From Xanthostigma xanthostigma (Eukaryota; Arthropoda; Insecta; Raphidioptera; Raphidiidae): a DNA stretch of 64,000 nt. Of this stretch, positions 8,986-43,449 are shown piece by piece (the first letter of the stretch is position 1; every line of letters begins with the position of its first letter). The notes beneath the pieces are model-generated. The model saw only the letters and a list, made by a program, of their open reading frames with translations, was not told where the DNA came from and did no database searches. The DNA lies in the NCBI GenBank assembly GCA_963575645.1, contig OY754473.1, positions 7,440,001 through 7,504,000 of the forward strand, written 5' to 3'. Both the position numbers and the translations under genes were made by a program.

Positions 8986-9545
8986 GACGTGATAACGTCT
9001 TATAAATTGATGAATCACCAATCTTATAAATTGATAAAACACCGGCTGCATGCACGAAAAAGTGTAACGTTCCGCCTGACCCTGTGCGTGCTTTTCTCGA
9101 AAACGGCCCTAACGATTTGGATGAAATTTACTGAAAAGGGATTTTGGGGGGCAAAAAATCGTTTTAGCTAGGTCTCATCTCTCGAAAAAATCGTTTTCAT
9201 ACAAATTTTATCATTATAAAAATCAATTTTTTGACGTATGAAAATACTTAAATATTGTAAGTAGGTTTTGGAATTTTATATAAACAGTGAAACAATTGTT
9301 TTCAAAATATTATGACAATTAATCTTTGAGACTTAAAATAAATACGAAAGAAAGAAAGTTAAAAAAAACAATTATATTATAGATGGTAAGTAATTTTAAT
9401 AAATAAAATTAACCTAAATTTGAAGCAAAAGATGCAATATCATAGATTCGAATTATTATAATTATTATATAAATTTAGGTTATGTATTACGGAATACGTT
9501 ATCACGTAAAACTATCGTCCGTAAACCGACTTTACAGACAACCAA
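8986..9545 (+). mobile_element. GACGTGATAACGTC family, copy A
   Basis: Begins with GACGTGATAACGTCTTATAA and ends GACTTTACAGACAACCAA, with T-runs on both sides. A sub-terminal inverse of the 5' motif (ACGTTATCACGT) lies about 50 bp from the 3' end. 560 bp. Four more copies lie in the window (15057, 23018 reverse, 26668, 42377). The ends are conserved while the middle differs. No coding capacity. Boundaries come from the empty site for copy E. Confidence 0.8.
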
Positions 9546-9857
9546 TTTTTTTTTATTATTGCCCATTTGATACTGAAGCCAAACTGGAGTTTTGCTTGTA
9601 TAAAGAAAATGGACATTGGTCCAATCATACAGCCGACTGAGATAAGATTTTCACACAGTTGACCTAGTTTTTCGTGAAGGAATTCCCCGAGGCATAGAAG
9701 CGTACGTCGTTTTGTGCCATCGTAGGCAATTATTTTTGCACGGGTGGTCAGACCTAATTTAGAAGGCCTATACCGACGGCTATAATAAAATATATTTTTA
9801 TTTGTCAAAAGGTCAATAACAAAACTAGTAAAAGACAATTAAACTTTTTATTAACAA

Positions 9858-10040
9858 CTAGCGGCCCGGTTCGGCTTCGCCCGAGTTTGTAAATTGCCAC
9901 CGTTTTTTCGTTGACTCACGTTACAAAATTGGTCTCCATGAAAAGCGCTTCTATCTTGAAGGTCCATTCTAAATAATGGTGAAAAAAAAATTGAAATCGG
10001 GTGAGTAGTTTCGGAGATTAGATAGACACATTGTGCTATT
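9858..10040 (+). repeat. LINE-like 3' tail fragment
   Basis: Starts 'agcggcccggttcggcttcg' and includes 'gtgagtagtttcggagatta'. The same wording recurs at 18800-18980, 20825-21050, 44790-44950 (reverse) and 46455-46512 (reverse). In insects such tails usually belong to RTE-type LINEs or SINEs that borrow them; the family is inference. Confidence 0.5.
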
Positions 10041-11320
10041 GTGACTTTTTTGTTGTTGAATATAGCCGTATTAAACCCGACACTGCCCGGGAATAACATC
10101 CACTCGGACGAAACCGAACGGAGCATGTAGTCGGTAAATATAAAACCGAGAGTATTGTTGTTATCTCTGGGAGGAAAGACGCTCGGAATTTTGTCGTGTT
10201 TCGTTCACTAGCTGTAGTGCTCGTCGTCTCGTTAATTTAATAAGGTCACTATACAACGCGGCCCATTTTCCGTGTTCAGAGTTAATTAGTATAAAGACTA
10301 TAAATGGCGTATAATGTCGCCACTGTTAAATGAATGGTACGTATTCTATTAAGTTCAGGGTAGACCAAAAAACAATTTCTCGAGCAATTTAAACATTGAT
10401 CTTATAATTTACTTCCCTGTAGATGACACGGAGATGTCAGGTGCCTCTGAGAAAGTTTATCGCGATTTCCTTCTTATTGAGCTCAAGAGTACTATTCGGA
10501 ACCCAAAGGAATGGCGAGAAATGCGTCGAACTGTCCTAAGGGGGGTTTTTGATAGGTAAACATTGATTTAGAAAAGCATTTCTTTGGGTTCCGAATTATC
10601 GAGCTACTCAAATCGTCAGTTGCGCAGCTCTTGATACCGGACATCGACTATACACTTAAAAACCTAACCTAAAATAAATCAGCTGTTTACTGGCGGCCAT
10701 GTTTTATTTTCCTGGAGTTTATAGTGATTCGGGAGAAGTATAGCTGGCAAATGATTGACAGGTAAAATACGGCATATTATTGACCGATCTAAAAATAACA
10801 TCCGAGTTCAAAATTGTTAATCCGGAAACCAAGTGAACGGAATGTTTTTAAGTTTTGTCCACTTGTCGACTGCAAGCATGAATGTCGATAATAAATAAAG
10901 CACGAACTGAACGTGATTTATCACTTTATCAGTTATCACTCTGGATTCCAAGAAAGGCGCGGCCCAACAAACTCGGCCATTGTTTACTGGAAATAGCTCG
11001 CGTAAAACGACTATATTTGATGCGTCGATATCTCGTTCGCAACGATGTTATTTGTTTACTTTTTATGGCGATGTGTTTTCTGCCGGCTTACTTGTTTCTT
11101 GATGAGTTTTTAATTAAATGTTTGCTGTCTGTATATGTAAATGCTGGAAATAATTAAAAATTTACTTAAAAACAATTCCACCGTTAGATATACAGGCCGA
11201 TTCGCAAATAGTAGTAATATTTTAACTGTTATCGAAGCCTATAACATATTTTATAAATGAATTAGGTGTTTAATAATAATAATTTTATTAATCCAATAAT
11301 ATCATATATCTATTAAATAG
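10041..11320. other. Intergenic stretch, no gene seen
   Basis: Contains one imperfect inverted repeat around 10485-10605 (CGGAACCCAAAGGAA against TTTCTTTGGGTTCCG). A phrase at 10672-10700 ('atcagctgtttactggcggc') recurs at 17690-17715. No coding frame is convincing. Confidence 0.5.
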
Positions 11321-11324
11321 CGGT

Positions 11325-11645
11325 CCCGCCCGGTTTCACCCGGGTGTAAAAGAACGAATGGGGGGAGTGGTACATGAGTACGCACAGCGGCACATTCATC
11401 TTAGTTTACCGAGATAAATGTTGTGTCCAAATTTCATGATGATCGGAGTTACCGTTCAAAAGTTTTTGTCGGACGGACAAATTTTGAGTTACATTTTGCA
11501 ACATTTTTCGTTGGTGCTCCGCTCCTATTAGTCGTAGCGTGATATTATATATAGCCTATGGCCTTCCTCGATAAATGGGCTATCCAACAAAAAAAAATTC
11601 AACCAAACAAACTCTTCAGCTTTATAATATATTAGTACCTATAGA
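11325..11645 (+). repeat. LINE/SINE-like 3' tail, second type, copy 1
   Basis: Runs from GCGGTCCCGCCCGGTTTCAC to 'caaactcttcagctttataa', the typical end of an insect RTE-like or SINE tail. A second copy at 35926-36525 carries a 0.26-kb insertion containing a tRNA-like sequence. Confidence 0.55.
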
Positions 11646-11807
11646 TTAATTATATGAATCATTGTCTATCTACTTAATGTGCAGTGAGTGAACGCAACAA
11701 AGCGTATCGAAAATATATCAGCGTCTCTTTCTTCGATGTAATTCCCTGATTTCTCCGATGATAGGTTGATGTACTTGCATACTTTGTCTTTCTCTATGAC
11801 GTTAATA

Positions 11808-11902
11808 TGGGCGTACCCAGCTTTGGGCCCACGAGGGAGCAAATTAGAAATTTCTGAAGCCGCGTCCCCCGTGCTTGTTTTGTCCTCCTGGATACGCCAC
11901 TG
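11808..11902. mobile_element. Short hAT-like remnant
   Basis: GGGCGTACCCAG at the left is roughly inverted as CTGGATACGCCAC at the right. This wording is common for hAT-type MITEs. Only about 95 bp and no clear duplication, so the call is weak. Confidence 0.3.
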
Positions 11903-12049
11903 CTTGAGGCTTAAAAAAAGACAGAAATATATCTTTGCACCCTAATGGTTCGATTGCGATTTTATTCCTATGCTCGGTATAGAATAAAACTATATGAATA
12001 ATACATAAAATTACTAAGAATAGACTGGATGCGCTCTTATGGCCTCTCT

Positions 12050-12546
12050 TGTCGAGCATCTATAATCTACAATAGACAAATTGTGAGCCAGATATTATAG
12101 ATCTACACTATCCCCCAGAAATAAATTCTCGAATGATAAAAAAGAGGGTCGAGTTATACCGGTCCAACTGTACGGAATTATATTACATAACTTTGCCATA
12201 GTAAATTGTACACACTCATGACTGTACCATCTGAACACATATATATATAAGTTAAGGCCATATTATAATATACACAAGTGTGTAATTACTAAATTGGAAT
12301 ACAAAAATAATGTTGTGTGTAGACTTTTGATGATGACTGAATGATGATGTCATCATGGCCGCAGTTTTCTGTCTCAGTCTGTCCTGGTGGACCGGTCAAG
12401 AACTGTTCTTTGTCCAAAATCAATCTCAATTTGATACACGTCTCCGTATATAAACTTACAATATCAACCGTCTATAATCTACAATATCAGGCTGTCCCCT
12501 TAAGTCGAGAGAGAGATTGTGAATAAATTATAGACGCTCAACAGCT
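12050..12546. mobile_element. MITE candidate with TGAGCGTCTATAATCTACA-type ends
   Basis: 'cgagcatctataatctacaa' at about 12053 is inverted at 12532-12546 ('attatagacgctcaacag'). The same roughly 18-bp phrase recurs singly at about 12468, 14204, 19020, 19745 and 39747 (reverse). Possibly the inverted end of one family. Class unknown. Confidence 0.4.
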
Positions 12547-12967
12547 GAGGTCATCACCGTCTATCCCCTAAGTCGAACTCTTCCACGGTTCCTGAATTAC
12601 AAGCCCCCAGTTCCAGGAACTGAATTGTTAAATTTATTATCCAGAGGATGTTCCACACATGGCTCCCCAGGTCCGGACCTTATTCATTTTTTTAAGACAG
12701 CCCTATCAAAGCGTGTGTGTTCGTAATTGTAGTGAAATTATTTACAAGATGTCGGTAAATCATCAGCGAAACCAGAGATGCACAGCCAACTTGTGTTCTT
12801 AAATAGAGGATCGTATGTTTATTCTGATAGAGCCATATATTCTCAACCAGGTAATAAAATAATAATGTCACATTATGCAATTTTACATGTGCTACCTTAC
12901 TCGATAAAAAAATTAATGTAACACATTTATTTTATTACACGATTGAAAAGAATATAAAAATATAGGA

Positions 12968-13482
12968 TAGCAAAAAAAAAGCGAGTGTGCTCTAGACCAC
13001 ACGACTGAAGTAAAGCTTCTTCCTGCCATATATAATAATGATACAATAAGTAATATTCGATAATCTATCACCATGTTTTGATTAGACATACTGATTTAAC
13101 GACACAATATAACCTCACTCTGTAGCACATATCTACAAAGACGAAATGTTTAAAATATAATTTTTTATTAATTAAATAGGCAAAATATGTGTATATACAT
13201 TTATTAGCATAATTTATAATACATTTAAAATGATTTATTAACTAATCTACATTATTTCCCGTTACAAAGTGCAGCAAAAAGCGATGAAATATATTTTTGA
13301 TACAAAAAAACAATTGTTCTCATTTTAAACGTATTAATGTTCCGTCTTTGTCGCACTCACTAACTTATATCTCCCTCTCAACTTCCAATATATGATGATG
13401 CACTTCCGTAAACGATTTCGTCAGGCATTTACCAGCTTACTCCCCGAGTCAAGCGTGCCTAAAGAAGTTTTACTTCAAAAAC
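12968..13482 (+). repeat. GCGAGTGTGC repeat, copy 1 (uninterrupted)
   Basis: Begins 'gcgagtgtgctctagaccac' and ends near 'gaagttttacttcaaaaa'. GAAGTAAAACTTCTT-type motifs lie inverted near both ends. Further copies: 28563-29455 and 43993-44512. This copy holds the empty site (TTAA 13225-13228) for the foldback insertion at 28816-29235. Confidence 0.65.
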
Positions 13483-14240
13483 ACACGTATGGTCTACTGT
13501 TATCTTCTAATTCAAATGACTCTGAAGTGTAAAAAATCGATGCAATGATGTCACTAATGTGCCAATTGGTCCACTGATAATTTACCTTTATCTTGCATAA
13601 GAAAAGTTCTAATTCAAATGATACCGAAGTGTAAGATATCGACCAATGGCTATCAGTTATCGATGCAGTGATGTCATTGCTGCGCCAGCCGATTGGTCAG
13701 ACGGCATAACAAACGCGGGTGTTGATGGAAAGTTTGTTGACGCTACATAACCGATTGCATGTTGATGTAAGTACATTAATTTATTCGTCCATCACAATTC
13801 AACCAAATCAACTTCGCGTGGAATGAACTCATCCGAACAACAAATATTGCCGTTGGTTAATTTTGATTCCGGTATCGTTTAACACTATCGCGAGTGCAAA
13901 ATAGATCGCTATTGGGAACCGATATAGTCGAGTCGAGAGTGGTAAACAAACGAAACCGCGTCGACTGCTCGAAAGTATAGACTGGAGATGAAACAAAAAC
14001 TTAGACTGTTGCTAACACAAAACTACACACCTGCAAAACAAAACTTCCAATTTGAAAGAGAGTTGGGCAAAAACATGTTTAGTGTCAAGTCATCCAAAAT
14101 TTCAATCTTCACGCTCCCCTCAGGGTCCAATATTTTATACCCGAGCTCGTACCAGTCGGTTTGTGTATGTTGGCCGACAGATTCTCTAATACCTCAGCTG
14201 TCGAGCGTCTATAATCCACAAACTATCCATCTCCGTTTAC

Positions 14241-14703
14241 ATGTTGGAAGCTTGTTAACCGTGGCGTAGCGGTGAGAGCACTAGACTCACATTCGGGAGG
14301 TACCGGGCTCGAATCTCGGCGGGCGCAGATGTGGCTGGGGACTTTTTCCTGCTGCCTCTCGCCGAGAAACGGCAATTCCTGTACCGGCCATCTTGTTGAT
14401 GTTTTCCATGGTTTCCCTCAATAATTCCAGATGAATATCGAGATGGTTCCTTATTCGTGGCCATGACCGGATTACCTGTCAAACTCATATGCCCAAAATT
14501 TGCCTACCTTATCCGAACTTCCTAAAAATTCATTCATTCGCCCATTGCTATTAACTATGTTGAAGTTTAAAAATTGTAGAAAATAACAGGACATGTGCGT
14601 AGATGGAAAATAGTAATGGTGCGAATGGCGTCTGTTATGACATAAAGTCGCGAAACGGACGTTAAACGCATTATTGTTATTATTATTATGTTGGAAGCTT
14701 GTT
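14241..14703 (+). mobile_element. tRNA-derived SINE with perfect 16-bp target duplication
   Basis: ATGTTGGAAGCTTGTT stands at 14241-14256 and again at 14688-14703. Between them a 431-bp body opens with a tRNA-like head: A box TGGCGTAGCGGTGAGAG near 14262 and B box GGGCTCGAATCTC near 14305. It closes with a TTATTATT-type microsatellite tail. Pol III promoter, tRNA head and target duplication together make a SINE. A reverse, head-truncated copy is at 49797-50201. The perfect duplication suggests a young insertion; the LINE partner is unknown. Confidence 0.9.
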
Positions 14704-15056
14704 TTATATTTTCGAGTTGTTATGCGTAGTGGCTTGTTTCATTTGCCGCCCAATCTTTCGATACAGTTTGGACGCGTGCAGTTCTGAACCGGGGCCGTAG
14801 ACACGTAAATGTTGGTCATCACGTGCATATTATATGTATTATTATAGTTGATATTCACTTATTACGCCCGTAGTATAAAAAAAAGAACATAAAAAAAACG
14901 CTAACTGGTTTTAGAATTTTATTTTTAATACTCGTTTTTTAGCAACGGTGTTTCTCTATTTTTTTTGCAGTCATTTGATTTTTTCAAATTCTATATATGT
15001 TTTTTATGACGATGTTTTTAAACTCTTAAAATAAATGTATATAGCGAGTGACTTTT

Positions 15057-15623
15057 GACGTGATAACGTCTTATAAATTGATGAAACACCGCCAGCACAC
15101 ACGAAAAAGAGTAACGTTCCGCAAGCGTCGGCTTGTGCGCATTTCTCCCTCTTCTCGCGTGACGTTAGAGAGTAGTGTGCGTTCAACATTTTTTTCGGCT
15201 GTTCCAGCGAAAGCTACATCTGACAGATGGCCTTTGTTTTATAAACCGTGGAAATTAAGACTTAAAATCAAGATATCTAATAAAAATGTCATAAATTATC
15301 GAATTTTTAAAGCAATTTTTCAGATAATACATCGTTATTTGTCAATTGATAGTTTGTACACAAACGCAGCTACATTTTGTATCAAAAACAAATCTTGGGA
15401 GATATCTGCATTTCATAACAGCAGATAAACCTACATTCTTTTAAATGTCTTTTATAATTGCTTAAAAATATGTATTTTGCTTTGGTTGATCAAATTATTA
15501 GTCGGTAAAAATATAGTTTGACAGCTACTAAAATTTAGGTTATGTATTATTAAATATGATATTCGAGCGGAATACGTTATCACGTAAAACTATCGTCCGT
15601 AAACCGACTTTACAGACAACCAA
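15057..15623 (+). mobile_element. GACGTGATAACGTC family, copy B
   Basis: 567 bp with the same two ends as copy A and T-runs outside. The interior differs from copies D/E but shares with copy C a segment containing 'gtcggtaaaaatatagtttg' and 'gatattcgagcgga'. Confidence 0.8.
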
Positions 15624-15931
15624 TTTTTTTTATCAACGAAATGAAGTCCTTGGAAACAGACGCTTTGATTCAAGATATATTTTTTTTGCTCTTATTTGTC
15701 CCGTTTAAATTTTTGCGCAACATGCGTTGGCTAATTATTGGATTGCAGAAAGCGCTGTCAGAAAATCTTCTTTGACATTGACCTTGGATTGACACCACAA
15801 ATGATTCTCAATAAGAAAAGCGTCGTAGAATTTCAAAAGGATCTTGAAAAGATTGTTTTTTTACCTTACCATTAATGAATTGCACGTATGCGTTTTTTGT
15901 TCGAATTTCTTTTCGAAACGTTTTCCTAGAC

Positions 15932-16256
15932 CAGGGGACGGCAACCTTTTGAGACTGAAGACCTATAAAAGTTACAATTTACAAAATTTCCCAGTTTTTA
16001 AAGAGCCACTAAATATTTTCGTTTCAGTATTATATTTGCTTATATAGGTATAATATATATATCCGAGGAAGACACGTCGCGACGGGAGCGGTGCGGGTGA
16101 GACGCGAGTGGAAATGGCTGAGAGATAGACATGGTACTCAATCATGGATCGATTGGACGATTTTTAAGGGTTTATATAATAAAATAATTATTTTTTGCGT
16201 ATGGAACTGGAGAGCCGCAACTTTACATCAAAAGAGCCGCAAGTTGCCGACCCCTG
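15932..16256. mobile_element. hAT-type MITE with 8-bp target duplication
   Basis: Starts CAGGGGACGGCAACCTTTT and ends AAGTTGCCGACCCCTG, the classic hAT terminus. Flanked by TCCTAGAC (15924-15931) and TCTTAGAC (16257-16264), an 8-bp duplication with one change. AAAGAGCC motifs lie at both sides. 325 bp, non-autonomous. Confidence 0.85.
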
Positions 16257-16264
16257 TCTTAGAC

Positions 16265-16996
16265 GCTTTGATCGAAATTCAGCTCGTTTTCAGGTTAAGA
16301 ATTGATTGGTTCGGAAGTCGAAAGTCGTTAAATTTTCTCTTAATTTTTCTCACACGTTGAGTAGCTCACGTGACAAGTTAACCATTGCTGCGGGTACGAA
16401 AATGTCACTCGAATCTCAGCCTAAATTTTGGTTTAGAAAAAATCCATGGAAAGAATGCGCGCCCCGACCGATTGCTCTCGTCCCGTGCATCGTTCTTGCA
16501 CCTCGAGCCGCGATAATCCCACTTCTGCAGGCGACGCCGATGTTTGTAAATGCAGAGCGCCCGCGCGCTCCGCGTTTTCTAAAAATAGCCGATGGCGTTT
16601 ACATTAACGATACATACACACACATTAATAGAATTAAAAACCTTGATTTCCCTTGCCTCACTTAACAAAATCGTATATAGATATTCTGCTTTGGAGTGCA
16701 CTTGTCGTACAGGCGCCTCGAAATACGGTGAGCTCTGCCTAGAGCCGCGCGAGCTACGAACGGTTTTAATGTCCTCTGCGTGAGGAAACGAAGTGGCCCG
16801 AAGAAACGTCTGCGAAGTCACTCGTAGTGCAAGACCTAACTCGTGCGACCGCCATGTTCTTAGCAGGCAGCGTTGCCGCTTTGTATACAAAACATGATTC
16901 AATCATAAGTTTTATACATATTATATGCGAAGCTATCAAACTGGCAACTGGAAATGTTGATAATCACAAATATGAAACTAAAATAATAAAGAAAAC
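16265..16996. other. Intergenic stretch, no gene supported
   Basis: A GC-richer segment at about 16430-16870 has short open frames on both strands but no recognisable protein, splice pattern or start context. Left unassigned. Confidence 0.4.
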
Positions 16997-17492
16997 TAGT
17001 GTGACCTGTGCGAATTATTCACACTAAATAAGTATAATAATTATCACTTTACAAAATTATTTTTTAAATATGTTTGCAGGTTTTCAATTCGTATCTAATT
17101 TTGCACACTGCTTATAACGTTCTTCTTTTTGTTGTATTACAATATGAAGCTCAGATGACAGATCGAAGAAATATTTTACTAAAATTGTCATATAGAGGCG
17201 CAAGTAGCGAAAGCGTTGAGCTAAGCCGTTAGATGGCATCATGCAGCATTGCTGTGACGTTGTTCAGCGTTGCTCGCTGTTTCAAAATTAAAGCCGTTAG
17301 ATGGCAGACGTTGTTCAGCTGTATTTTAATTAATTTACAAAAACAAAAGCAATAATAAATTTTTTAGTTGTCGATGTCAATAGAGCAAGCAATTATCTGT
17401 AAAATGATATATAATTTATGTGGAGAAATTGTGAGGTTTTTTCTAAAAAGGGAGGCAAACATCTTTAACCTTAGCGTATTAATATATATGAT
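16997..17492 (-). repeat. 0.6-kb dispersed repeat, copy 1 (internally shortened)
   Basis: Bounded by 'ctagtgtgacctgtgcgaat' and 'ttagcgtattaatatatatg'. Full-length copies of about 600 bp are at 34611-35208 and 58953-59553, in the opposite orientation. The internal phrase 'gccatctgacggctttaatt' is repeated within full copies; this copy lacks part of that array. No inverted ends; class unknown. Confidence 0.65.
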
Positions 17493-18200: not shown

Positions 18201-18204
18201 ATCT

Positions 18205-21905: not shown

Positions 21906-22945
21906 AAAGCGGCCCATAGACGCTCAATATTTTGACGACGGCTCCTAGACGGTCAATAATATTGTACAATATTTTGGTTTGTGCAAAAAATTGTACTAAA
22001 ATAAAATAAGACACCTTGGTATTATGGTATGATGAAGTTAACGGGATACAAGGCAAAATTTTACAACAATATTTATTTAACAGCACTTCATTTAATAGTC
22101 AACGTTTCGGCAAACAATTATTGCCTTCTTCAGGACTTTAAAATGTCTATTAAAAGTCACAAGTTAAAAACATAAATTATTTTAACTTGTGACTTTTAAT
22201 AGACATTTTAAAGTCCTGAAGAAGGCAATAATTGTTTGCCGAAACGTTGACTATTAAATGAAGTGCTGTTAAATAAATATTGTCTTAAAATGTCTATTAA
22301 AAGTCACAAGTTAAAAACATAAATTAATTTATGTTTTTAACTTGTGACTTTTAATAGACATTTTTAAAGTCCTGAAGAAGGCAATAATTGTTTGCCGAAA
22401 CGTTGACTATTAAATGAAGTGCTGTTAAATAAATACTTATTGTTTTAAAATTTTGCCTTGTATCCCGTTAGCTTCATCAAAAAATTGTACTGTATGCGGA
22501 GGCGATATTGAAGGTTGTGCAATATATTGCTCAATTGCGAGCACAGACGGTACAGCCACATTGTGCAAACAGTCCCCACCAGAACTTCAGTCATCATGTT
22601 GTCACGTTTACTATAGTCTTTGGACTTCACATCCCACAACCGGAAGACCACGATACACCTCGATAAATTCAACAATAATTTGTCTTTCGGCTTTCTTATG
22701 TCACCCATGATGAGGCGTAGTTGAGACGACTTGTTGAAACGGCCGCTACTTGAGATCAACTGACGGGATATTGCGCAATATTGACAACAGACGGCACAAT
22801 ATTTCCCCGTCTGTGCAATATATTTTCAAGATTTTGAAAATCACACAATATATTGCGCAACTTTTCAATCTCGTCTACACACGGTCAATTATATTGCACA
22901 AACCCAAATATTGCGCAGTAATATCGAGCGTCTATGGGCTGCTTT
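21906..22945. mobile_element. 1-kb element with 25-bp inverted ends, carrying a nested palindromic insert
   Basis: Left end AAAGCGGCCCATAGACGCTC, right end inverse AAAGCAGCCCATAGACGCTC. Sub-terminal parts are rich in CAATATTG-type palindromes. A 450-bp inverted-repeat array (22030-22479) sits inside. No transposase seen. Confidence 0.65.
22030..22479. repeat. Palindromic array with three CTGAAGAAG...CGAAACG hairpins (Penelope-like?)
   Basis: The outer arms (TGATGAAGTTAACGGGATAC and its inverse) extend about 110 bp inward, followed by further inverted and direct copies of a unit ending in 'tgaagtgctgttaaataaat'. Hairpin motifs: 22103-22133 (minus), 22216-22246 (+), 22372-22402 (+), each with stem GGCAA/TTGCC. 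A related motif with a different stem lies at 31814-31843. Such ends resemble Penelope-like retroelements, whose termini are known to carry hammerhead ribozymes. The assignment is inference. Confidence 0.5.
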
Positions 22946-23017: not shown

Positions 23018-23289
23018 TTGGTTGTCTGTAAAGTCGGTTTACGGACGATAGTTTTACGTGATAACGTATATTCCGCTCGAATATCATATTTATAATAATA
23101 CATAACCTAAATTTTAGTAGCTGTCAAACTATATTTTTACCGACTCTCTATCGCTTATACTGCGCTCTCGCTTGCACGCACAGGGTCAGGCGGAACGCTA
23201 CACTTTTCGGAACGTTACACTTGGCGGAACGCTACACTTTTTCGTGCATGCAGCCGGTGTTTCATCAATTTATAAGACGTTATCACGTC
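23018..23289 (-). mobile_element. GACGTGATAACGTC family, copy C (short, reverse)
   Basis: 272 bp, both family ends intact, T-runs (as A-runs here) outside. Contains two or three variants of a GTGTAACGTTCCG-type unit, so the interior repeat count varies between copies. Confidence 0.8.
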
Positions 23290-26290: not shown

Positions 26291-26667
26291 GGAAGGGGGG
26301 AAGCCTGTCCGTCAATGGGACGAACGGACACTTGACAGTCGAGTGCATATTGACGTGAAGACGCGGTCACAATCGCACGCGATGCTAACTTTGAAGTGAC
26401 TTTCGACTTGAAATTTTTGGTTTTGGGTGCAGAGATTTCAATCGGATATAATAGATAAGAGTAAAATGTAATGGAAGCGACCGTTTCTAATGAAATAATT
26501 TCGTTAGATGACAGGGAGAAATTTAGTTCAATTCGATTTATGTTTGACATACTTCCCGTTGACCTAGAATCATGAAATTTAGCAATAAGCCATGTCTTAT
26601 AGCACAAGTAAAGGAAAAAATCCGAAAACCGTAAATTTGCAGAGTGACATCACAAACATTTTTTTTT

Positions 26668-27296
26668 GACGTGATAACGTCTTATAAATTGATGAATCAT
26701 CAATCTTATAAATTGATAAAACACCGGCTGCATGCACGAAAAAGTGTAACGTTCGTAACGCGTAACGTTCCGCCTGACCCTGTGCGTGCTTTTTGCTAAT
26801 TTCTCGCTCAATTTAAATCAGATCGGTTTGAAACCAGTCTTAAACGAAAGAGGAGAACATTTTACATAGATTTCGTATAACAGAATTTGCCTAAACAGTT
26901 TTTTTATACAAATTTAGATAGAAAAATAGCTGTATAAATGCAATGTTGTCTAATGCATGGCGCGACGCGGTCGGTCGTCTTTGTTTGCCGTACATGGAAA
27001 TTAGAATATAACGTATGTCTTGTCTTAACATGAAAACGGCTGCATTTCTAATGTTTAATTCAATTTTTTGACATTAGTATTTTGTGAAATGCAACGCCTT
27101 CTAAGTTAAGTATTGGAATAACTAATTATTATTAGAACATAATACTTTGACAGTTGCAAACGTCACTTTTGACATTTCTTATCATTCCGACACCAAGGAT
27201 AAGCGGATTGAAACCAAATTTTGGGAGGTTTAGGTTATGTATTACGGAATACGTATTATGGAATATCGTCCGTAAACCGACTTTACAGACAACCAA
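26668..27296 (+). mobile_element. GACGTGATAACGTC family, copy D
   Basis: 629 bp, interior nearly identical to copy E (42377-43041), differing mainly in the number of TAACGTTCC-type units. T-runs flank both ends. Confidence 0.85.
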
Positions 27297-27513
27297 TTTT
27301 TTGCGATTATAAACTTATTGGCTTTTGGTAAACTGAACGCGATCTATGTCGATGTTTTGGGACAACAGTTTTCCAACGGCAAAACGGTAAAAATCTCCGA
27401 GACTCGATTCCCGTGATGGACGAACTATTTACGTATCTACAAGTTTGTACGGCACCCTCGGTGCGCGAGTACGACTCGCATTCTTTTTTTTTTAGATACT
27501 GTAACAAAACTGC

Positions 27514-33871: not shown

Positions 33872-33875
33872 TTAA

Positions 33876-34610: not shown

Positions 34611-35208
34611 ATCATATATATTAATACGCTATAAGGTTTAAGATGTTTGCCACCCTTTTTAGAAAAAACCTCACAATTTCTCCACATAAATTATATATCA
34701 TTTTACAGATAATTGCTTGCTCTACTGACATCGACAACTAAAAAATTTATTATTGCTTTTGTTTTTGTAAATTAATTAAAATACAGCAACGCTGAACAAC
34801 ATCTGCCATCTGACGGCTTTAATTTTGAAACAATGTCAACACTTCGATCTGTCATCTGACCTTCATATTGTAATACAACAGAGACAATACTGCATACTGC
34901 CATCTGACGGCTTTAATTTTGAAACAGCGAGCAACGCTGAACAACGTCACAGCAATGCTGCATTATGTCATCTGACGGCTTAGCTCAACGCTTTTGCTAC
35001 TTGCGCCTCTATATGACAATTTTAGTAAAATTTTTCTTCGATCTGTCATCTGAGCTTCATATTGTAATACAACAAAAAGAAGAACGTTATAAGCAGTGTG
35101 CAAAATTAGAAACGAATTGAATACCTGCAATCATATTTAAAAAATAATTTCGTAAAGTGATAATTATTATACTTATTTAGCGCGAATAATTCGCACAGGT
35201 CACTCTAG
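34611..35208 (+). repeat. 0.6-kb dispersed repeat, copy 2
   Basis: Full-length relative of 58953-59553, same orientation. Internal phrase 'catctgacggctttaatttt' occurs twice. No inverted ends. Confidence 0.7.
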
Positions 35209-35925
35209 TTTGTTTTGTATTTTATTAAGTATCTTATGCATGTCTTGGGATGTGGTGGAATCATCTTCATTAAACAATAGGAATTTTTCGATAAGTTTGA
35301 CGGCATCAAGTGCTTGTTGAATAGTTGGTGATGGTTCAGAATCGTCCTCTTTACGTCTGTAAACATTTGCTGACGCCTAAATATGAACATATTTCTTCGT
35401 AATAGAGAATGGCTGTTGCGCTATAAAGAGGGGTTTTAAGGTAAACCAATCAATTTGTAAAAAAATCTACTCTAAGCGCTTTTGTCTTGTAGACGCAAAT
35501 CGTAAGTTCTTTGACGGCATAAACAGTTCCTGCAGCGCCGAAGTTCAAACAATTTTCTGCGACGGTTCACACCGCCGGGTTTAGGACATGTGTTGCTTAG
35601 ACGCGTTGTTGTTATTATTATAACGCAATAAGTTGGATTAATTGTTGTACAGTTGCGTGGACCCCGCGAGTCCATCGTTCCGCGTCGCTAACTTTCCCGG
35701 CGTGCGACAACCCGTGTCGGTTGTTTGTTGTTGTCGAACGGCTCTTTAACCTCAAATTATGTAACCCTATTCTGTATGGACAGAAAATTAACGACGCTGT
35801 TATAAATTTCTGACCAGAATTTTTGAACAGATTTTTGATGCCGTTTTTTTCACTAGTTGCTTGGCTCGGCTCTCGTCCAAATGCAAATTGATTGAAATCG
35901 AGTTTATGTCATACTAGCGGTCTCG

Positions 35926-36525
35926 TCCGGTTTCACCCGGGTGTAAAAGAACGAATGGGGAAGGGAGGAACATGAGTACGCACATTCATCTTAGTTTACC
36001 GAGATGAATGTTGTGTCCAAATTTCATGATGATCGGAGTTACCGTTCAAAAGCTTTTGTCGATAAAAAGCAGTATTTATACTTTTTTAAACTAATATTTT
36101 TTTAAATTAATTAAATAAAATTTAAATAAATTTAAATGTAAGCCTTAGAAGAAAGCAATGTAGAAAATAAAAAAAATAATAAAAATGTTTTCGCCCAACG
36201 TGGGGCTCGAACCCACGACTCTGATATTGACAGTTGCATGCTCTACCGATTGAGCTATACGACGTTGTCTACCCACAACGCTGATATGAGTATATTTAGT
36301 TAGTGCATTTCACCTGAATAGAAGCTTATTTTTGAGTTTGCAACATTTTTCATTAATGCTCCGCTCCTAATGGTCGTAGCGTGATATTATATAGCCTATA
36401 GTCTTCCTCGATAAATGGGCTACCCAACAATTTTTTTTTCAATTTGAACCAGTAGTTCCTGAGATTAGCGCGTTCAAACAAACAAACAAACTCTTCAGCT
36501 TTATATATTAGTATAGATACCTCTC
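35926..36525 (+). repeat. LINE/SINE-like 3' tail, second type, copy 2 with insertion
   Basis: Matches 11325-11645 on both sides of an insertion at about 36062-36330. Ends in 'aaacaaactcttcagcttta' and 'tatattagtatagat'. Confidence 0.6.
36192..36264 (-). pseudogene. tRNA-Lys-like pseudogene (or SINE head)
   Basis: On the minus strand the 73-nt segment has a good D arm (TAGCTCAATCGGTAGAGC), T arm (GTGGGTTCGAGCCCCAC) and 3' acceptor GTTGGGCG as in insect tRNA-Lys(CTT). The 5' acceptor strand does not pair with it, the anticodon stem has two mismatches and the loop reads CTGTCAA. So it is not a working tRNA. It lies in an insertion inside a retroelement tail, suggesting a SINE-type insertion. 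Confidence 0.6.
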
Positions 36526-36529
36526 CAAA

Positions 36530-37898
36530 ATTACCATCCTGTGTTTAAAATATCACTGTGTCAAAAGCAAGTGTCTATACGGTTTGTTAACCTCGGCCCC
36601 CTACACATAATATGTCACAGTACTGCACTGCGTTTATTCAGTGTTGGCACAAGATACGGGGTCGTTCAGGTCAGGGTCGGACTTACGAAACGACATTTCA
36701 TAATGTCATAATGACAGGGCCGTATCCCAGTCGAGACGAAATTAAATATATCCGAAATGTATTTTCATTAAACAATCTAATCTTTTTCGTTGACTGGATT
36801 TATTTTCTCGTTAAATTATTTCAATCGCGATAATGTTGTTTTTTACCACCGCTAATAGCCCACTCTATATATACTGCGGTTCAGAAATAATAGAGTTCCC
36901 TTAAAAAATAAAATAAAAGCATTAAGAACACTGAAACAAAAATAAAAAATAAAGAATTGTTACTACTTACCACAACAGTTTTATTAGCGGATGTACTTTT
37001 CGGGAACTATGCTCTCATCTTTCCTTAATTGGACGACAAGACAATAATAATAAAATCATTTTTTTTTTCTTTTGTTATACAGTAAGTACAGTACAATAAA
37101 TATCTTGGAATATTTTCCCCCTCACTAGGTAATGATATAACCTGTATCAATGTAGGTCATACAAAATTTCAGCTCAATCGGATAACGGGAAATGTGTCAA
37201 ATTTAACTTGCAAGATTTCAGACAGACATCGGGACAGATGAAACTAAATGAAAACTTATAAAAACTGTGCCGTTTATTGCTTGCCGCTCCGTTAAGCGAG
37301 TCCTACTAAAATGATGACTCACTCTGTATTATTTCGGAGCTTATTATGTATAGCGCGACTGTCATAATATAATTATTTGAACTCTAAATTAGATATAAAC
37401 ATAGGTCGGAATAAAAGGAGCAATCGGTCTTTTCCGTATATGTGCGCGTACCCGAACGCGTTCGGAAAGAGATGGGTCATCGCACTGTGCGTCGTTTTCC
37501 GTATTTTGCTTTGCTATATAGCTCCTTCTTCCTAATAGCTCTTCCTGTCGCCGCTGAACTTCACTGCGTCCGAACGGAATCGCTTGCCAGAGTGGATCCG
37601 TGTTTCGCGTGCTTTAATCAGGTGATCCAACTCGAACGTGGCGGTGGACCGATATCTGTCGCATGTACCAATATGGCGTCAGCACATACGTTCATGGCTT
37701 ACATGTTTGAAACTAAACGACTTTGGTAACTATGGCGAAAACAGGCGGAAAGAACCGAAGTGTTCCCAGATGGTGATAACAGCGCCATTTTGCGTACGCC
37801 AGAAAACGGTCCGTCTCGACGGCAAGCATAGGGAGCCAGGTCTCCTGGTTACAGACTTCTCGGTTTGCGGTTAAAATTAACAGCGCTGTCTCTCTTTA
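36530..37898. other. Intergenic stretch, no gene supported
   Basis: A GC-richer part at 37440-37870 has short open frames (95 and 78 codons) without recognisable domains, splice context or a partner repeat. One of them has a hydrophobic stretch near its start, but nothing else speaks for a gene. Confidence 0.4.
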
Positions 37899-38563
37899 AG
37901 TTTTTTTAATTGACTTTTTTATGGCAAAAATTTCTGTAAAAAATCCAAAATCATTAAGAGATTTATAAATTTAAAAATTAAAAAAAACTTTTACATGTAG
38001 TCTTATGGAAAATATGTCAACCTAGCATGCAAACGGTACATTTAAATTTTTTGCAAATAACCAAATAATGTCAGCAGTTCCGAAAACTAACTATGTAAAG
38101 CATCGATGTCTTACGCATATTTTAATATTTATTCCAATTTAATTAGGAGACTTTTAATCAATAAAAAAAAATTATTAAACCTTAGCACTTTTCGATTACC
38201 TATGGACTTTTATTCTTGACGATTTTAGCAATTTTAACTGAATTTTCAACTTTTTAATTGTTTAATTTTAATTTTTATTACTTCTACTTTTTTTTTAATT
38301 ATTTACTGCAAAAAATATGTAAAGTACAGATATTTACATACATTTATTTTTTCTAACCTAACTTTGTACAAAAAATTCAAAGCTAGTCCATTAAGTAAAA
38401 TACTGAAATAATAATTAATATTAAAAAAAATATTTATTTATGCCTTTATGATAATAATTTATTAGTATCATCGACTTATAACCTTTTGTAAAAATTTATT
38501 ATGGAAAAGTTCCCATTTAGAATTCGACTTACTTTTGATTGGGACTGTAACGCATCAACCTCC
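37899..38563 (-). mobile_element. TTAA element of the GGAGGTTGA family, reverse copy, left end lost
   Basis: Right end 'cgcatcaacctcc' followed by TTAA 38564-38567. The body is the reverse of 51295-51981 (for instance 'atgtagtcttatggaaaata', 'caacctagcatgcaaacggt'). The left terminus is not recognisable. Confidence 0.7.
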
Positions 38564-38689
38564 TTAAGTATCGTTGTAGCTATTTAGATGTATAGATGCT
38601 TTTAAAAACAGGGGGAAATATCTTTTCAAATCGCCTCAGCAGTTCCTGTGAATACCCCGTCGCAAACGAGCGCGTGCTATAATAATAGA

Positions 38690-39113
38690 TCGTGTTTTGT
38701 CGCCGCATATAGTTCGGCACCGTCGCCGCGCGTTCGATAGTGGCGCGACGAGCCGTTCGGCCGACCGCTATCCTCGCGTTACGCCGATTCTCTCTCTCTC
38801 TCGGCCGCTCTCTGCAGTATTCTCTCTCTCTCGCGCGCACCAACACACTGCGTTATACTGACACAGTGGAGCCTCTCGACCCGTCCTTTTCCTGCCGTTC
38901 CTGCTGGCGCTCCGTCTTGTCCTGCTGCATAATATGTATAGCGCAGACACACTGGCTAGCTGTGTGCGTGCGTAGTGTTTTGTTTTACAATTGTTGACTT
39001 TTAAAAATTGTTATTGTTGACACGGATCGTCTTTTTTTTTAAATCCCGAAATGGATATTGTTTTTGTGTTGTACGCAATGTTGGATGTTTTAGGTTAAGA
39101 TATCGATTTTGCG
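38690..39113 (+). promoter_or_regulatory. Candidate beta-spectrin promoter and 5' non-coding exon
   Basis: GC- and CpG-rich block (GTCGCCGCGCGTTCG, CGGCCGACCGC) with CT/GA runs at 38790-38840 (GAGA-factor-like sites), then a transition to T-rich DNA and a strong donor GCG|GTGAGT at 39113/39114. The coding exon 1 of beta-spectrin has an acceptor right before its 5' UTR (44577-44578), so a non-coding exon upstream is required. This is the best candidate within 6 kb. Inference only. Confidence 0.4.
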
Positions 39114-40652
39114 GTGAGTCGTGTTTGTTTCGTCTGCTGTTGTTGCTAATTTGTTTTTGCGGAAGTTTTAACCGTTTTTTTTTGTCGAATGTTTTTGGAT
39201 CTTGTTTCGAGACGAATTTGTTACTATTTTGTTTGTTTTCAAACTAATGGGAATCTCCATTTAGTTGAAAACAAACGACATTCTTAAATTTTGAGTCGTG
39301 CCAGAAGTTCAGTCAAGTTTTTGTGACAAATAAAAAATCGATAATGTAACGATTGCCTGCTATTTCGACAAGTTGTATTTTCTTTTTTTTTTAATCGAGA
39401 GTCACTCTGATCTTTATCAAGACTGTCTTAAAGAATTTGTTATTCTGATGTGTTTATTTAAAGAACAAATATAATGTTAATTTCTGACGCCTGTAATTTG
39501 TTGCAGGAATGTAAATTGTCCAATTACCTGCCATTTCTAACAAAAAAAAAAAAACACACATTTTCGAAGAACTAAAAATTATATTCTTGTGGAACGGAAA
39601 AATTCGCACGTTTGTGTCAGTTTGCTATTTCTGTTATATATATATTTTTTTAAATATAGTTTTGACAGTTGAGAATATCTGTATTGATTTTGTCAGTTTC
39701 TAGCAAAATTTGCTAGAGAGAGAGAAAGAGATAGACTGTGTATTATAGACGCTCGGCAACGAAGCTAGTTTTTTCAATAAAATAGAAGCTAATGTGATTT
39801 TACGATTGCTTTTTAAAGAAATTGTGATTTCGAATGTTTTATCTTTTTTGTTTATAGATTTCGTATTTTAGAAAAATAAAATTCGAAAAATATTGAAGCA
39901 TTTTGATAACTCTCGTAGTGTTTAGATTTTAAAAATGAAATTATGGTGTGTTTTTTTTGTTTTTTTGTTGATAAACGACGCGTTTTTTCAAGTGTTCGTC
40001 CTTGCCTCAAGGTCATGAATACATGCCATATTCGTAATTTTTTGACTGCCGGTATTATTTTCGTTTCTGAACTGACTATAGTCAATTTTTGTTTCTAAAC
40101 GAAATTCGCTTTAAAAAAATTCGAAATTGCAGGATCGTCGTTGTTTATTTGACGTGTCGTCTAGACTCTAGATTACGGACTCATATTCCTATTTGGGAAC
40201 TGGTGCAAATATTAATGTCCAGTTTATCAATTATAGAAAACAATAGTTAATTGAAAAAAAATATAGAGCTCATACTTAGCCCAGATAACATTTAAAGTCG
40301 GTGGCTTTTTTTTTTAATCGTTCAACGAACACCTCGGTTTTTTCATACTTAAAATTTATGTAGCGTTTAGTGTTTTGTTTCAGTACTTGTCGTAGTTCAT
40401 GGTTGAGGAAATCGATAAAATTTCTGCGCCAACATAAAATCAGTGAATGCGAGTTTTTCGAACGTGTTTTTCTTTTTTATCGTTTCATATAGTATTTACT
40501 TTGTATTTTATGGTTGTGCAGGCGCTAACGATTTTTTGTGTCCGTTTGAAAACGTTTCATAGACTAATTGTTAGATGAGGAAATTTCAACCGACTTGTAT
40601 GAGTTATAGATATTCAAATTGGTCACACGAATCGAAAAACGCCTTGTGTCTA
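39114..40652. other. AT-rich stretch, probable beta-spectrin 5' intron
   Basis: T-rich, no coding frame. Has one reverse GAGCGTCTATAATACA-type phrase near 39747. Would be intronic if the donor at 39114 is used. Confidence 0.4.
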
Positions 40653-40656
40653 TTAA

Positions 40657-41560
40657 GGGGGGGTAAGGTCAAATCATACGAAAAAAGCCATGTTTTCGTG
40701 ATTTTTTTTCTGACGACGCAGTTAAAATTTCTTTACTCAACCAATGGTACATTGAAGTATGACATTCGAAGAATGTTTCATCAAATTTGTACAAAGAAAT
40801 ATTAAAAAATACGGCAATGGCAGCAATTGTTCGGACGTGTCTCGAAAAAAAGTTGAATTGCGGTGCCCCTCATAACTTGGTGCTGGATCATCTGAAATCA
40901 AAAAATCAAAGTTCATTCGTTAGATAATAGTTTTCCCCAGGTAACGCTGTTGAGTTTTTTTTTCCAATTTTTTTCATTTTTTCGAACACTTTGAAGTGAA
41001 AAACACAATTTTGTGGGAAAAAATCGGCTAATTTGTTATTGCGAAATCAAAATTATGAACAAAAAAAAAAAAAACTCGACAGCGTTACCTGGGGAAAACT
41101 ATTATCTAACGAATGAACTTTGATTTTTTGATTTCAGATGATCCAGCACCAAGTTATGAGGGGCACCGCAATTCAACTTTTTTTCGAGACACGTCCGAAC
41201 AATTTGCTGCCATTGCCGTATTTTTTAATATTTCTTTGTACAAATTTGATGAAACAGACCAGGTATAAACCCGTTTGTCCTTGCCTTGAAATTTCGATAA
41301 ATGGAACTGGGAGGTAAGGTACTACATTAATAGAGAGCGAAACATCTGTCGGGTAACAATAGTGCGCTCGGGTCGGGGCGCTCGGGTCGGTTCGGGTATA
41401 GGTACAAAAATCCGGCAGGTATAAAAATACTCATAACTTCGTCAATTTTGCTCCAACTGACTTGAAATTTTGACACAATATTCTTCAGATATTACGGATT
41501 CAATTTCGAAAATAAAAAAAAAATGCAAAAAAAAATTAAATACCTTACCCCCCCCCCCCC
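40657..41560. mobile_element. TTAA-flanked element with 195-bp internal foldback arms
   Basis: TTAA 40653-40656, then GGGGGGGTAAGGT; right end ACCTTACCCCCCC and TTAA 41561-41564; 904 bp. Inside, 40765-40960 is the near-perfect inverse of about 41060-41255 (for instance 'caaatttgtacaaagaaata', 'ccccaggtaacgctgt'), separated by about 100 bp. A transcript would fold into a long dsRNA hairpin. piggyBac-like by its TTAA flanks. Confidence 0.8.
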
Positions 41561-41946
41561 TTAAAAAACAAGTAGTTTTTTTTTTGTCTGAGAACTTTTG
41601 ATATTTTTATGGTTTCGTACTCTTCTGTCTGTCCGTCTGTCAAACCCCTTTTTTTCTCAGGAAAGACCGGTGATATCAAGTTGAAATTAATATCAAATAC
41701 TGAGTTCTACGACCCCATAATCCTAAATACCAACACCAAAAATATAGAAAAAATATATATTTTTTTTTTTAATAGTGACTCATCACTCATCAAGACGTGT
41801 AGGGTATTTCCCGTTGACCTATAATTTTGAAAATAAAGGAACCAACACAAAATGTGAAATTGTCACGTGACAAACTTAATTTTTATAGGTTTCCGTCAAA
41901 ACTCGTTTTCTCAGAGATATTGGAAGCTAGGAGTTTTTATTTTTAA

Positions 41947-42199
41947 ATACAGTCAAACCTGAGTGAATGAGAACTGGGTAGAAGCGAGAAAACTCCCTAA
42001 GTGAGAGTAATTACCGTCTTTGTAACCCTCTAAGACCTCTATAAGTGAGAAACAGAAACCTCTATATAAGAGAAAGACGTTTTTCACTCATGGACCTTCT
42101 ATAACTGAGACTACTACTTGCCTGTACCTCTGTAAGCGGTAGTCGAACGTATTAATAGTTCCACGAAATAAATAGCTGAACTAACATTGTTTTTGTATA
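41947..42199. mobile_element. pogo/Tigger-like MITE, left-half copy
   Basis: CAGTCAAACCTGAGTG and following text match 25073 onward. The match stops at 'tttttgta', exactly where the Tc1-like element at 42200 begins at a TA. Confidence 0.6.
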
Positions 42200-43449
42200 C
42201 AGTTATGTGAACACGTAAGGTGCACATAGGGAAATTAACATTGGGAAAAAATGACTGGATCAGAGTGAGCCTTGAAATCTTGTTTTTCAATTTGACAGAT
42301 AATATTCTTTTGCAAAATGAATGTGAGGTACTACCGAAGAAAATATTCAAATGATTACAACATAATCGGACTTTTTGACGTGATAACGTCTTATAAATTG
42401 ATGAATCACCAATCTTATAAATTGATAAAACACCGGCTGCATGTACGAAAAAGTGTAACGTTCCTAACGGTCGTAACGTTCCTAACGTAACGTTCCTAAC
42501 GCGTAACGTTCCGCCTGACCCTGTGCGTGCTTTTTGCTAATTTCTCGCTCAATTTAAATCAGATCGGTTTGAAACCAGTCTTAAACGAAAGAGGAGAACA
42601 TTTTACATAGATTTCGTATAACAGAATTTGCCTAAACAGTTTTTTTATACAAATTTATATAGAAAAATAGCTGTATAAATGCAATGTTGTCTAATGCATG
42701 ACGCGACGCGGTCGGTCGTCTTTGTTTGCCGTACATGGAAATTAGAAAATAACGTATGTCTTGTCTTAACATGAAAACGGCTGCATTTCTAATGTTTAAT
42801 TCAATTTTTTGACATTAGTATTTTGTGAAATGCAACGCCTTCTAAGTTAAGTATTGGAATAACTAATTATTATTAGAACATAATACTTTGACAGTTGCAA
42901 ACGTCACTTTTGACATTTCTTATCATTCCGACACCAAGGATAAGCGGATTGAAACCAAATTTTGGGAGGTTTAGGTTATGTATTACGGAATACGTTATCA
43001 CGTAAAACTATCGTCCGTAAACCGACTTTACAGACAACCAATTTTTTTTTTATTAATGGGACATTAAATTCCCAAAAATACTTAAATATGGTGCGAGATC
43101 AAATATCTCCGCCTATTCGTGTTGAACCTAAAGACATTGGGTCACCGGTTTACCAACGCGCATACGTCGTACCAGGCAGACAATTTTTGAATGAAATGTG
43201 TTTCCAAACAGATGGAGTTGTTTTTTTGTTTTATTTCTGTACAAAAAAATTAAAATAATGATTTATAAGAGCTTTTTATTATTAAAAAAGCCAAGTAAAA
43301 TAAAAATAAATCAAAATAAAATAGAAATCCTCAAGACTACCACGATAATTCAATAGAAATAACAATTAATGCAGTCATGGCTAACTCTGGTCCAAGTATT
43401 TTTTCCCAATGCTAATTTCCCTATGTGCACCTTACGCGTTTACATACTG
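42200..43449 (+). mobile_element. Tc1/mariner-like element with transposase relic, carrying copy E
   Basis: TA|CAGTTATGTGAAC at the left, GTTTACATACTG|TA at the right. Sub-terminal AAGGTGCACATAGGGAAATT is inverted at the far side. The right half encodes a relic ([20 protein letters not shown]) similar to the middle of Tc1/mariner transposases. 42377-43041 is an insertion of the GACGTGATAACGTC family; the uninterrupted relative is 54787-55348 (reverse). Confidence 0.75.
42377..43041 (+). mobile_element. GACGTGATAACGTC family, copy E (boundaries given by an empty site)
   Basis: 665 bp. In the relative at 54787-55348 the site reads as one run of six T; here GACGTG... to ...GACAACCAA is placed between T5 and a longer T run. 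So the element starts at GACGTG and ends at CCAA, in a T-tract. Interior holds about four TAACGTTCC-type units. Confidence 0.9.

What the first reader, a model, noticed from the sequence alone, without database searches (positions are those of the whole stretch)
8986..43041. Unclassified five-copy family, GACGTGATAACGTC ... GACAACCAA, inserted in T-tracts
Copies at 8986, 15057, 23018 (reverse), 26668 and 42377 share both ends but exchange interiors (272-665 bp). The 5' end is a palindrome, GACGT-GATA-ACGTC, and its inverse sits about 50 bp inside the 3' end, so the ends are related but not simple terminal inverted repeats. Every copy lies between T-runs. This matches neither a standard TIR element, a Helitron (TC...CTRR, A/T site) nor a SINE. 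It could be a new non-autonomous group.
Basis: partly seen in the sequence, partly recalled or inferred. Interest (0 to 1): 0.7.

Follow-up and report, generated by a model that had tools for sequence, protein, structure and literature searches.

The report
Abundant non-autonomous rolling-circle transposon (HINE)
The five repeats are short, gene-less jumping elements of the Helentron (rolling-circle) kind, present in tens of thousands of copies in this animal genome and apparently moved by a larger element of which one damaged copy was found; this is a new family of a known kind.

Summary
All five copies exist at the stated places. Their ends occur about 24,500 times (5' 14-mer) and 20,300 times (3' 28-mer) in the 623 Mb genome, against 1 and 0 reversed-pattern matches. 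The anatomy matches HINEs, the non-autonomous partners of Helentrons in PMC4067079: a palindromic subterminal repeat at the 5' end, its inverse about 40 bp inside the 3' end, a (weakly folding) 3' stem-loop, insertion into T-tracts, no non-T target-site duplication. Empty sites confirm the boundaries of two window copies. One 7.1 kb element on C5 has exactly the same ends around a Helitron-type Rep with the Helentron signature FLRIEFQHRGSPHAH, a PIF1 helicase piece and an endonuclease-like piece. A 243-bp copy is such an element with its middle deleted. No intact partner was found: the next-best long Rep matches are 30-33% identical. Verdict: a new HINE family of a known kind. Open: what moves it now, and whether head-to-tail copies (252 adjacencies) reflect rolling-circle multimers.

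The parts
8986..9545 (+). HINE copy 1, 560 bp (T4 | element | T9)
15057..15623 (+). HINE copy 2, 567 bp (T4 | element | T8)
23018..23289 (-). HINE copy 3, 272 bp (T5 | element | T8)
26668..27296 (+). HINE copy 4, 629 bp (T9 | element | T6), inserted in another repeat; 3' subterminal repeat altered; empty sites found
42377..43041 (+). HINE copy 5, 665 bp (T5 | element | T10), inserted in another repeat; empty sites found
8986..8999 (+). 5' palindromic subterminal repeat GACGT-GATA-ACGTC (copy 1; the same at 15057, 26668, 42377 and, reversed, 23276-23289)
   Evidence: hairpin of copy 1, z -2.95
9495..9508 (+). 3' subterminal inverted repeat TACGT-TATC-ACGTA (copy 1); also 15573-15586, 42991-43004 and, on minus, 23055-23068
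9517..9539 (+). 3' terminal stem-loop: stem of 3+5 pairs with one mismatch around a 5-nt loop, 6 nt (AACCAA) from the end (copy 1); same sequence at 15595-15617, 27268-27290, 43013-43035 and, on minus, 23024-23046
   Evidence: weak: z -0.85
42455..42512 (+). internal short tandem repeat (GTAACGTTCC-type units) of copy 5
55034..55322 (-). paralogous empty site for copy 5: same host repeat, about 92% identical across the junction, no HINE, 6-T tract

Best explanation
The five repeats are HINEs: short non-autonomous derivatives of a Helentron. Inferred mechanism: the Helentron Rep (HUH nuclease)/PIF1-helicase/endonuclease protein, supplied in trans, recognises the palindromic subterminal repeats and the 3' stem-loop, copies one strand by rolling-circle replication and joins it into a T-tract, with terminal Ts of the element probably adding to the tract. 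Shown here: anatomy, copy number, boundaries by empty sites, absence of a non-T target-site duplication at two window copies, one same-ended Rep-coding element, and at least one HINE that is a plain internal deletion of such an element. Inferred: rolling-circle chemistry, recognition roles of the ends, and mobilisation in trans.
For: Anatomy agrees with the published HINE description. E, the reversed C5:10924000-10945500 stretch, carries exact 5' and 3' ends (7,125 bp from end to end) around a Rep ORF of 1162 aa in the same orientation. PF14214 5.6e-26 on the 1085-aa part scanned and PIF1 2.5e-16 on the following ORF. The Rep motif EFQHRGSPHAH, preceded by FLR, carries the Helentron S; all 30 canonical Helitron loci looked at have L (diagnostic). 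A further ORF piece aligns to the endonuclease part of another Helentron of this genome, 30% over 87 aa, E 1e-05 for that single comparison. HINE C1:60113752 = E's first 171 bp (96.5%) plus its last 66 bp (98.5%). Empty sites: 40 of 40 scored places (of 179 candidates) for copy 5 and 38 of 40 (the other 2 are the copy's own halves; 2819 candidates) for copy 4 run across the junction without an element. Junction: T7 empty against T5+T10 filled for copy 5, T7-8 against T9+T6 for copy 4. Adjacent copies are head-to-tail 252 times and tail-to-tail at 6 places, as expected if orientation is tied to the T strand (head-to-head was not searched).
Against: The only Rep copy found for this family is damaged (the helicase frame breaks off, the endonuclease is a fragment) and has no close second in the genome (42 of 57 candidates scored). 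So a competent partner is inferred, not shown. The 126-aa endonuclease-like piece has no Pfam match and only two PDB matches near E = 1, to an unrelated flocculation protein. The 3' fold is weak: 36 of 200 shuffles fold as well. Copy 26668 has an altered 3' subterminal repeat. Copy 8986 has no empty site. E's ends and Rep could in principle be two HINE fragments around an unrelated Helentron, though the deletion derivative argues against that.
Confidence: 0.93

Rival explanations
1. A MITE or other TIR DNA transposon with unusual subterminal repeats, moved by a DDE transposase.
For: Short, non-coding, high copy, with an inverted repeat pair of 19 nt, 89% complementary.
Against: The inverted pair is at the 5' end on one side and about 37 bp inside the 3' end on the other; no non-T target-site duplication at empty sites; a same-ended element encodes Rep and helicase pieces.
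Confidence: 0.03
2. A canonical Helitron (Helitron1) non-autonomous family.
For: The genome holds many canonical Helitron Reps with long frames (27 of the first 30 places have frames of 1498-1620 aa).
Against: No TC start, no CTRR end, T-tract instead of A|T target; the partner Rep has the Helentron S signature, and none of those 30 canonical places is among the 43 matches of its Rep.
Confidence: 0.02
3. The family is now moved by a different, about 30-33%-identical Helentron of the genome rather than by its own partner.
For: Five long open frames (2103-2487 aa) match E's Rep at 30-33%; HINE copies of the 26668/42377 subfamily differ by only about 1-4% substitutions, although the only same-ended Rep found is broken.
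Against: The stretches read around six such or similar loci (C10, C3, two on C2, C9, C1) do not show these ends joined to the Rep, and one has other subterminal repeats; the real partner may be missing from the assembly.
Confidence: 0.2
4. A SINE or other retroposon inserting by target-primed reverse transcription (T-tract target, terminal T-run).
For: T-run at the 3' side and T-rich targets.
Against: Ts on the element's own strand flank both ends and no longer duplication is seen; ARAGORN finds no tRNA in the window, and the only Rfam match (36200-36257) lies outside the copies; a DNA-transposon relative with both ends exists.
Confidence: 0.01

Closest known systems
HINE-Mo and HINE-Cq (Helentron-associated interspersed elements of mite and Culex), PMC4067079
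   Same: Palindromic subterminal repeats near the 5' end and about 38-60 bp from the 3' end, a 3' palindrome, internal tandem repeats, T-rich target with variable terminal Ts, no target-site modification; deletion derivatives of a Helentron.
   Different: Own terminal sequences (GACGTGATAACGTC ... GACAACCAA); longer T-runs (the two filled sites compared gain about 7-8 T, against strings of 2-5 T in Culex). The mite Helentron also has an RPA ORF; RPA was not searched for here.
DINE-1/INE-1 of Drosophila, PMC4067079
   Same: Same superfamily, very high copy number, subterminal inverted repeats, 3' stem-loop, T-rich/TT target.
   Different: DINE-1 subterminal repeats are not palindromic according to the paper; here they are.
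Helitron2 (FoHeli of Fusarium and others), PMC5148889
   Same: Asymmetric terminal inverted repeats and hairpins at both termini; target written there as between TTTT and T or C (passages).
   Different: The endonuclease is named there as what sets Helentrons apart; an endonuclease-like piece is present in E.
Canonical Helitron (Helitron1)
   Same: Rep/PIF1 helicase enzyme class, 3' hairpin.
   Different: TC...CTRR ends and A|T target absent here; Rep signature S instead of L.

Membership tests
HINE/Helentron | 12-15 bp palindromic subterminal inverted repeats, 5' copy near the 5' terminus | tested here: met
   GACGTGATAACGTC in 5 of 5 window copies; 4-9 T in front
HINE/Helentron | Inverse subterminal repeat about 38-60 bp from the 3' terminus, at least 11 bp identical | tested here: met
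   12 identical bp, 37 bp before the end of the final CAA, plus terminal Ts, in 4 of 5 window copies; altered in copy 26668
HINE/Helentron | 3' palindrome or stem-loop near the terminus | tested here: inconclusive
   8 pairs with one mismatch and a 5-nt loop are predicted in the two (identical) 3' ends folded, but 36 of 200 shuffles fold as well; the stem sequence is exact in 5 of 5 copies
HINE/Helentron | Insertion in T-rich target, no non-T target-site duplication | tested here: met
   Empty sites for copies 42377 and 26668; a duplication made of Ts alone cannot be told from terminal Ts
HINE/Helentron | Longer partner with the same ends encoding Rep and helicase | tested here: met
   E on C5: PF14214 and a PIF1 piece between exact ends, damaged
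HINE/Helentron | Helentron Rep signature (S between G and P, F/Y-x-R before motif 2) | tested here: met
   FLRIEFQHRGSPHAH against EFQKRGLPHCH in 30 of 30 canonical Helitron loci looked at
HINE/Helentron | C-terminal AP-type endonuclease domain | tested here: inconclusive
   A 126-aa piece aligns to the endonuclease region of another Helentron here, where PF14529 itself scores 20.2 bits, below its cut-off of 27.4; the piece has no Pfam match of its own
Canonical Helitron | 5'-TC and 3'-CTRR, A|T target | tested here: not met
TIR DNA transposon / MITE | True terminal inverted repeats and fixed target-site duplication | tested here: not met
SINE | Pol III (tRNA-type) head | tested here: not met
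   No tRNA by ARAGORN; the only Rfam match at gathering score lies outside the copies; A/B boxes not searched separately
Named Repbase/Dfam family | Sequence match over the ends to a named consensus | not testable with these tools
   No such library held; literal 14-mer in 0 papers

The most novel reading that the evidence does not exclude
A HINE family of tens of thousands of copies, with low divergence in at least one subfamily, that has outlived every intact copy of its own enzyme in the assembly. It would be kept moving by a distantly related Helentron acting on palindromic ends, sometimes as head-to-tail rolling-circle multimers (187-190 bp units joined by T spacers of constant length within an array).
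Probability: 0.15. Interest if true: 0.5.

Novelty: new member of a known kind. Interest (0 to 1): 0.22.

Why it matters
It settles the classification of a repeat that makes up, by a rough estimate of 24,500 copies times about 490 bp (mean of 66 paired copies), some 12 Mb or 2% of this genome, and that could otherwise be annotated as unknown or as a MITE. The pairing of a huge HINE family with one broken Rep copy is a usable test case for cross-mobilisation, and the tandem copies for rolling-circle multimers, in Helentrons.

Tried and rejected
TIR element/MITE, SINE and canonical Helitron were considered and rejected (see rivals). Several Rep loci were read for the same ends without success: C10:6811000-6827000 and C3:36858000-36876700, C2:56139501 stretches, C2:39306000 stretches, C9 and C1:60 Mb stretches (the only full ends seen there belong to short complete HINEs). 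For four of these six loci only flanking stretches were read, so an end elsewhere could have been missed; other Rep loci were not read for distant ends. The first Rep-motif script printed nothing because its pattern was too strict. For copy 8986 no paralogous empty site was found: only its own two halves matched. Copies 15057 and 23018 were not searched genome-wide.

Head-to-tail copies as proof of rolling-circle replication was considered and not claimed. The window has 162 T-runs of 7 or more (both strands), about 1.6 million genome-wide if typical (my arithmetic), and some 25,000 HINE 3' T-runs are themselves targets. Random T-tract insertion would therefore give a few hundred head-to-tail pairs, as observed (252). 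The two arrays read were chosen because two junctions lay close together; four such spots (junctions under 700 bp apart) are among the 100 listed places. One is 3.0 units of 187 bp at 98% matches; the other shows three copies with two T8 spacers, the first copy with a changed 5' end. A paper search on tandem Helitrons was seen as a listing only.

The length list pairs only exact forward-strand ends on the first 3 Mb of C1, copied by hand from the capped lists: 66 of 92 5' ends paired (180-1025 bp, median 563, mean 490); 26 unpaired ends were set aside. In one search, 18 rows were written as full; two of them (C5:10936383 and C5:10937268) are 3' subterminal repeats read as 5' ends. They were still among the queries and were dropped before the comparisons, leaving 16.
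Full report
What was checked. The window is G000:C10:7440001-7504000 of a 623 Mb genome in 28 contigs. The five copies are present as described: 560, 567, 272, 629 and 665 bp, each from GACGTGATAACGTC to GACAACCAA. A fuzzy scan of the window (up to 9 mismatches in 29- and 28-base ends) finds no others. Genome-wide the 14-base palindrome occurs 12,396 + 12,150 times (reversed control 1) and the 28-base 3' end 10,236 + 10,108 times (control 0). On the first 3 Mb of C1, 66 of 92 listed forward 5' ends pair with an exact 3' end within 3 kb; lengths run from 180 to 1025 bp with a median of 563, in a few length classes. Mean length times copy number gives about 12 Mb, an estimate of mine.

Anatomy. 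The 5' end is T4-9 (window copies) followed by GACGT-GATA-ACGTC, a hairpin that 1 of 200 shuffles equals. The inverse, TACGT-TATC-ACGTA, stands 37 bp before the 3' end in 4 of 5 window copies. Its outer base pair differs from the 5' one on both sides (G-C to T-A), so it stays palindromic; in E and some other copies it reads GACGTTATCACGTA, where the outer pair is lost. After it comes a stem of 8 pairs with one mismatch around a 5-base loop, then AACCAA and a T-run of 6-10 in the window copies. The 3' fold is not significant by energy alone (36 of 200 shuffles). Interiors contain short tandem repeats, TCTTATAAATTGATGAA-type and GTAACGTTCC-type. Copies 26668, 42377, C1:37782 and C1:80900 form one subfamily, differing by 0.012-0.040 substitutions per aligned base outside indels. 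The other pairs printed (mostly short copies, some partial alignments) range from 0.000 to 0.175, so not all copies are equally young.

Boundaries and target. Copies 26668 and 42377 sit in other repeats. Joined 100+100 bp flanks of 42377 match 40 of 40 scored places (179 candidates) across the junction with no element. Those of 26668 match 38 places, the other two of the 40 rows being its own halves (2819 candidates). Copy 8986 has only its own halves. Read junctions for 42377: CGGAC-T7-ATTAATGGG when empty (7 places in 6 loci: L062, L063, L064, L065 twice, L067, L068), with variants in L066 and at window:55034-55322 (T6), against CGGAC-T5-element-T10-ATTAATGGG when filled. For 26668, T7-8 when empty (L069-L071) against T9-element-T6. 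So insertion is into a T-tract, nothing but T is duplicated, and the site gains about 7-8 T. Whether these are terminal Ts of the element or a T duplication cannot be decided. [quoted passage not shown] A third copy, C1:60113752, has an 82%-identical empty place in L050, T-rich but less clean.

The partner. A Helitron_like_N search finds 89 matches. The 30 places cut out with 1.5 kb flanks all show the canonical Helitron motif EFQKRGLPHCH. Other places have longer frames (2103-2509 aa); one of them, on C3, reads RIEFQHRGSPHVH, the Helentron form, with PIF1, a sub-threshold endonuclease match and a UCH domain. One locus, E (C5:10924000-10945500 reversed), has the 5' end exact at 2029 and the 3' end exact up to 9153. 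In between, in the same direction, lie a 1162-aa frame with Rep (PF14214 5.6e-26 on the 1085 aa scanned) and FLRIEFQHRGSPHAH, then a 152-aa frame with PIF1 (2.5e-16). A 126-aa frame overlapping that one aligns in two blocks to the endonuclease part of the C3 Helentron (30% over 87 aa; 39% over 28 aa with the ETW block). A 243-bp HINE of the same family is nested in E on the other strand. E is therefore damaged. Its Rep finds itself at 100%, then five places at 32-33% over about 900 aa and further long ones at 28-31%. Shorter pieces, several with stop codons, reach 42-53% over 59-374 aa. There is no second same-family Rep over its length among the 43 matches (42 of 57 candidates scored). None of the 30 canonical places is among those matches; one weak match (34 bits, C9:20383704) is to a frame whose class I did not determine. 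HINE C1:60113752 is E's first 171 bp plus its last 66 bp at 96.5 and 98.5%, which is how PMC4067079 describes HINEs: simple deletion derivatives.

How it works. Shown: ends, copy number, target, lack of a non-T duplication at two copies, same-ended Rep element, deletion derivative. Inferred from the Helentron literature and general knowledge: Rep nicks and joins single strands at the ends, the helicase unwinds, the endonuclease may help at the target, and HINEs borrow the enzyme. Adjacent copies are joined head-to-tail 252 times; 91 of the 100 listed have nothing but 4-14 T between (counted by eye). Tail-to-tail occurs at 6 places (12 rows, each seen on both strands). Head-to-head was not searched. 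That fits an orientation fixed by the T strand. Two of the head-to-tail places were read and are arrays of three units. Random insertion into the T-run of an earlier copy predicts a similar number of pairs, so I do not read them as proof of rolling-circle multimers.

Comparison. HINE/Helentron hallmarks from PMC4067079 (abstract and Results parts 1 and 2 of 3 read) are met except the stem-loop energy and the endonuclease, which are inconclusive. PMC5148889 (12 passages) gives the Helitron2 target as between TTTT and T or C, close to what is seen. [quoted passage not shown] Searches on Helentron/HINE, Helitron2/HLE2/HELIANO, Helitron/Lepidoptera and Helentron/Hemiptera terms (listings) showed no paper that I could tie to this family. 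The palindrome itself is in 0 papers of the library. Repbase and Dfam were not available, so whether the family is named there is unknown.

Verdict. Interest is low to moderate. The unsolved parts are the missing intact enzyme and the tandem copies.

Noticed in passing
G000 C3:36862838-36870298 (L049, L050): A Helentron-type open frame of 2487 aa carries, besides Rep, PIF1 and a sub-threshold endonuclease match, a ubiquitin carboxyl-terminal hydrolase domain (PF00443, 1.7e-11) near its end.
   Followed up: no
G000, L009-L038: Canonical Helitrons: 27 of the first 30 places have frames of 1498-1620 aa; 14 of these 30 places share one Rep score (205.7 bits) and 6 another (208.4), suggesting recent spread.
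   Followed up: partly
L051:2932 and L052:2845 (C2:56.14-56.15 Mb): Another Helentron-like element (2241-aa open frame) with a 13-bp subterminal repeat TGTCATGGTTATC and its inverse on the other side, i.e. other ends.
   Followed up: partly
window 42317-42376 / 43040-43099 and 55034-55322 (minus): The host repeat of copy 5: at least 40 places at 95-98% identity (best 40 of 179 candidates scored).
   Followed up: partly
window 26568-26667 / 27297-27402: The host repeat of copy 4: a more diverged family (2819 candidates, best 40 scored, 80-88% identity apart from self).
   Followed up: no
window 52663-58847: Open stretches with a CH domain and spectrin repeats (PF00307, PF00435), by their look exons of a beta-spectrin gene.
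   Followed up: no
window 45539-45925: 129-aa frame that by eye resembles a mariner-type transposase; Pfam gives no match.
   Followed up: no
window 22138-22435: A 156-bp unit repeated twice, 94% matches, with internal inverted symmetry by eye, near copy 3.
   Followed up: no
window 36200-36257 (minus): Rfam tRNA match of 32.7 bits, model positions 8-63 of 71, that ARAGORN does not call; perhaps a tRNA relic or SINE head.
   Followed up: no
G000 C10:12631094-12631139 and C9:5532182-5532210: Two of the six tail-to-tail places are odd: on C10 two HINE 3' ends face each other around a palindrome without T-runs (GTTGCCATGTTAACATGGCAAC), on C9 around five bases of A only.
   Followed up: no
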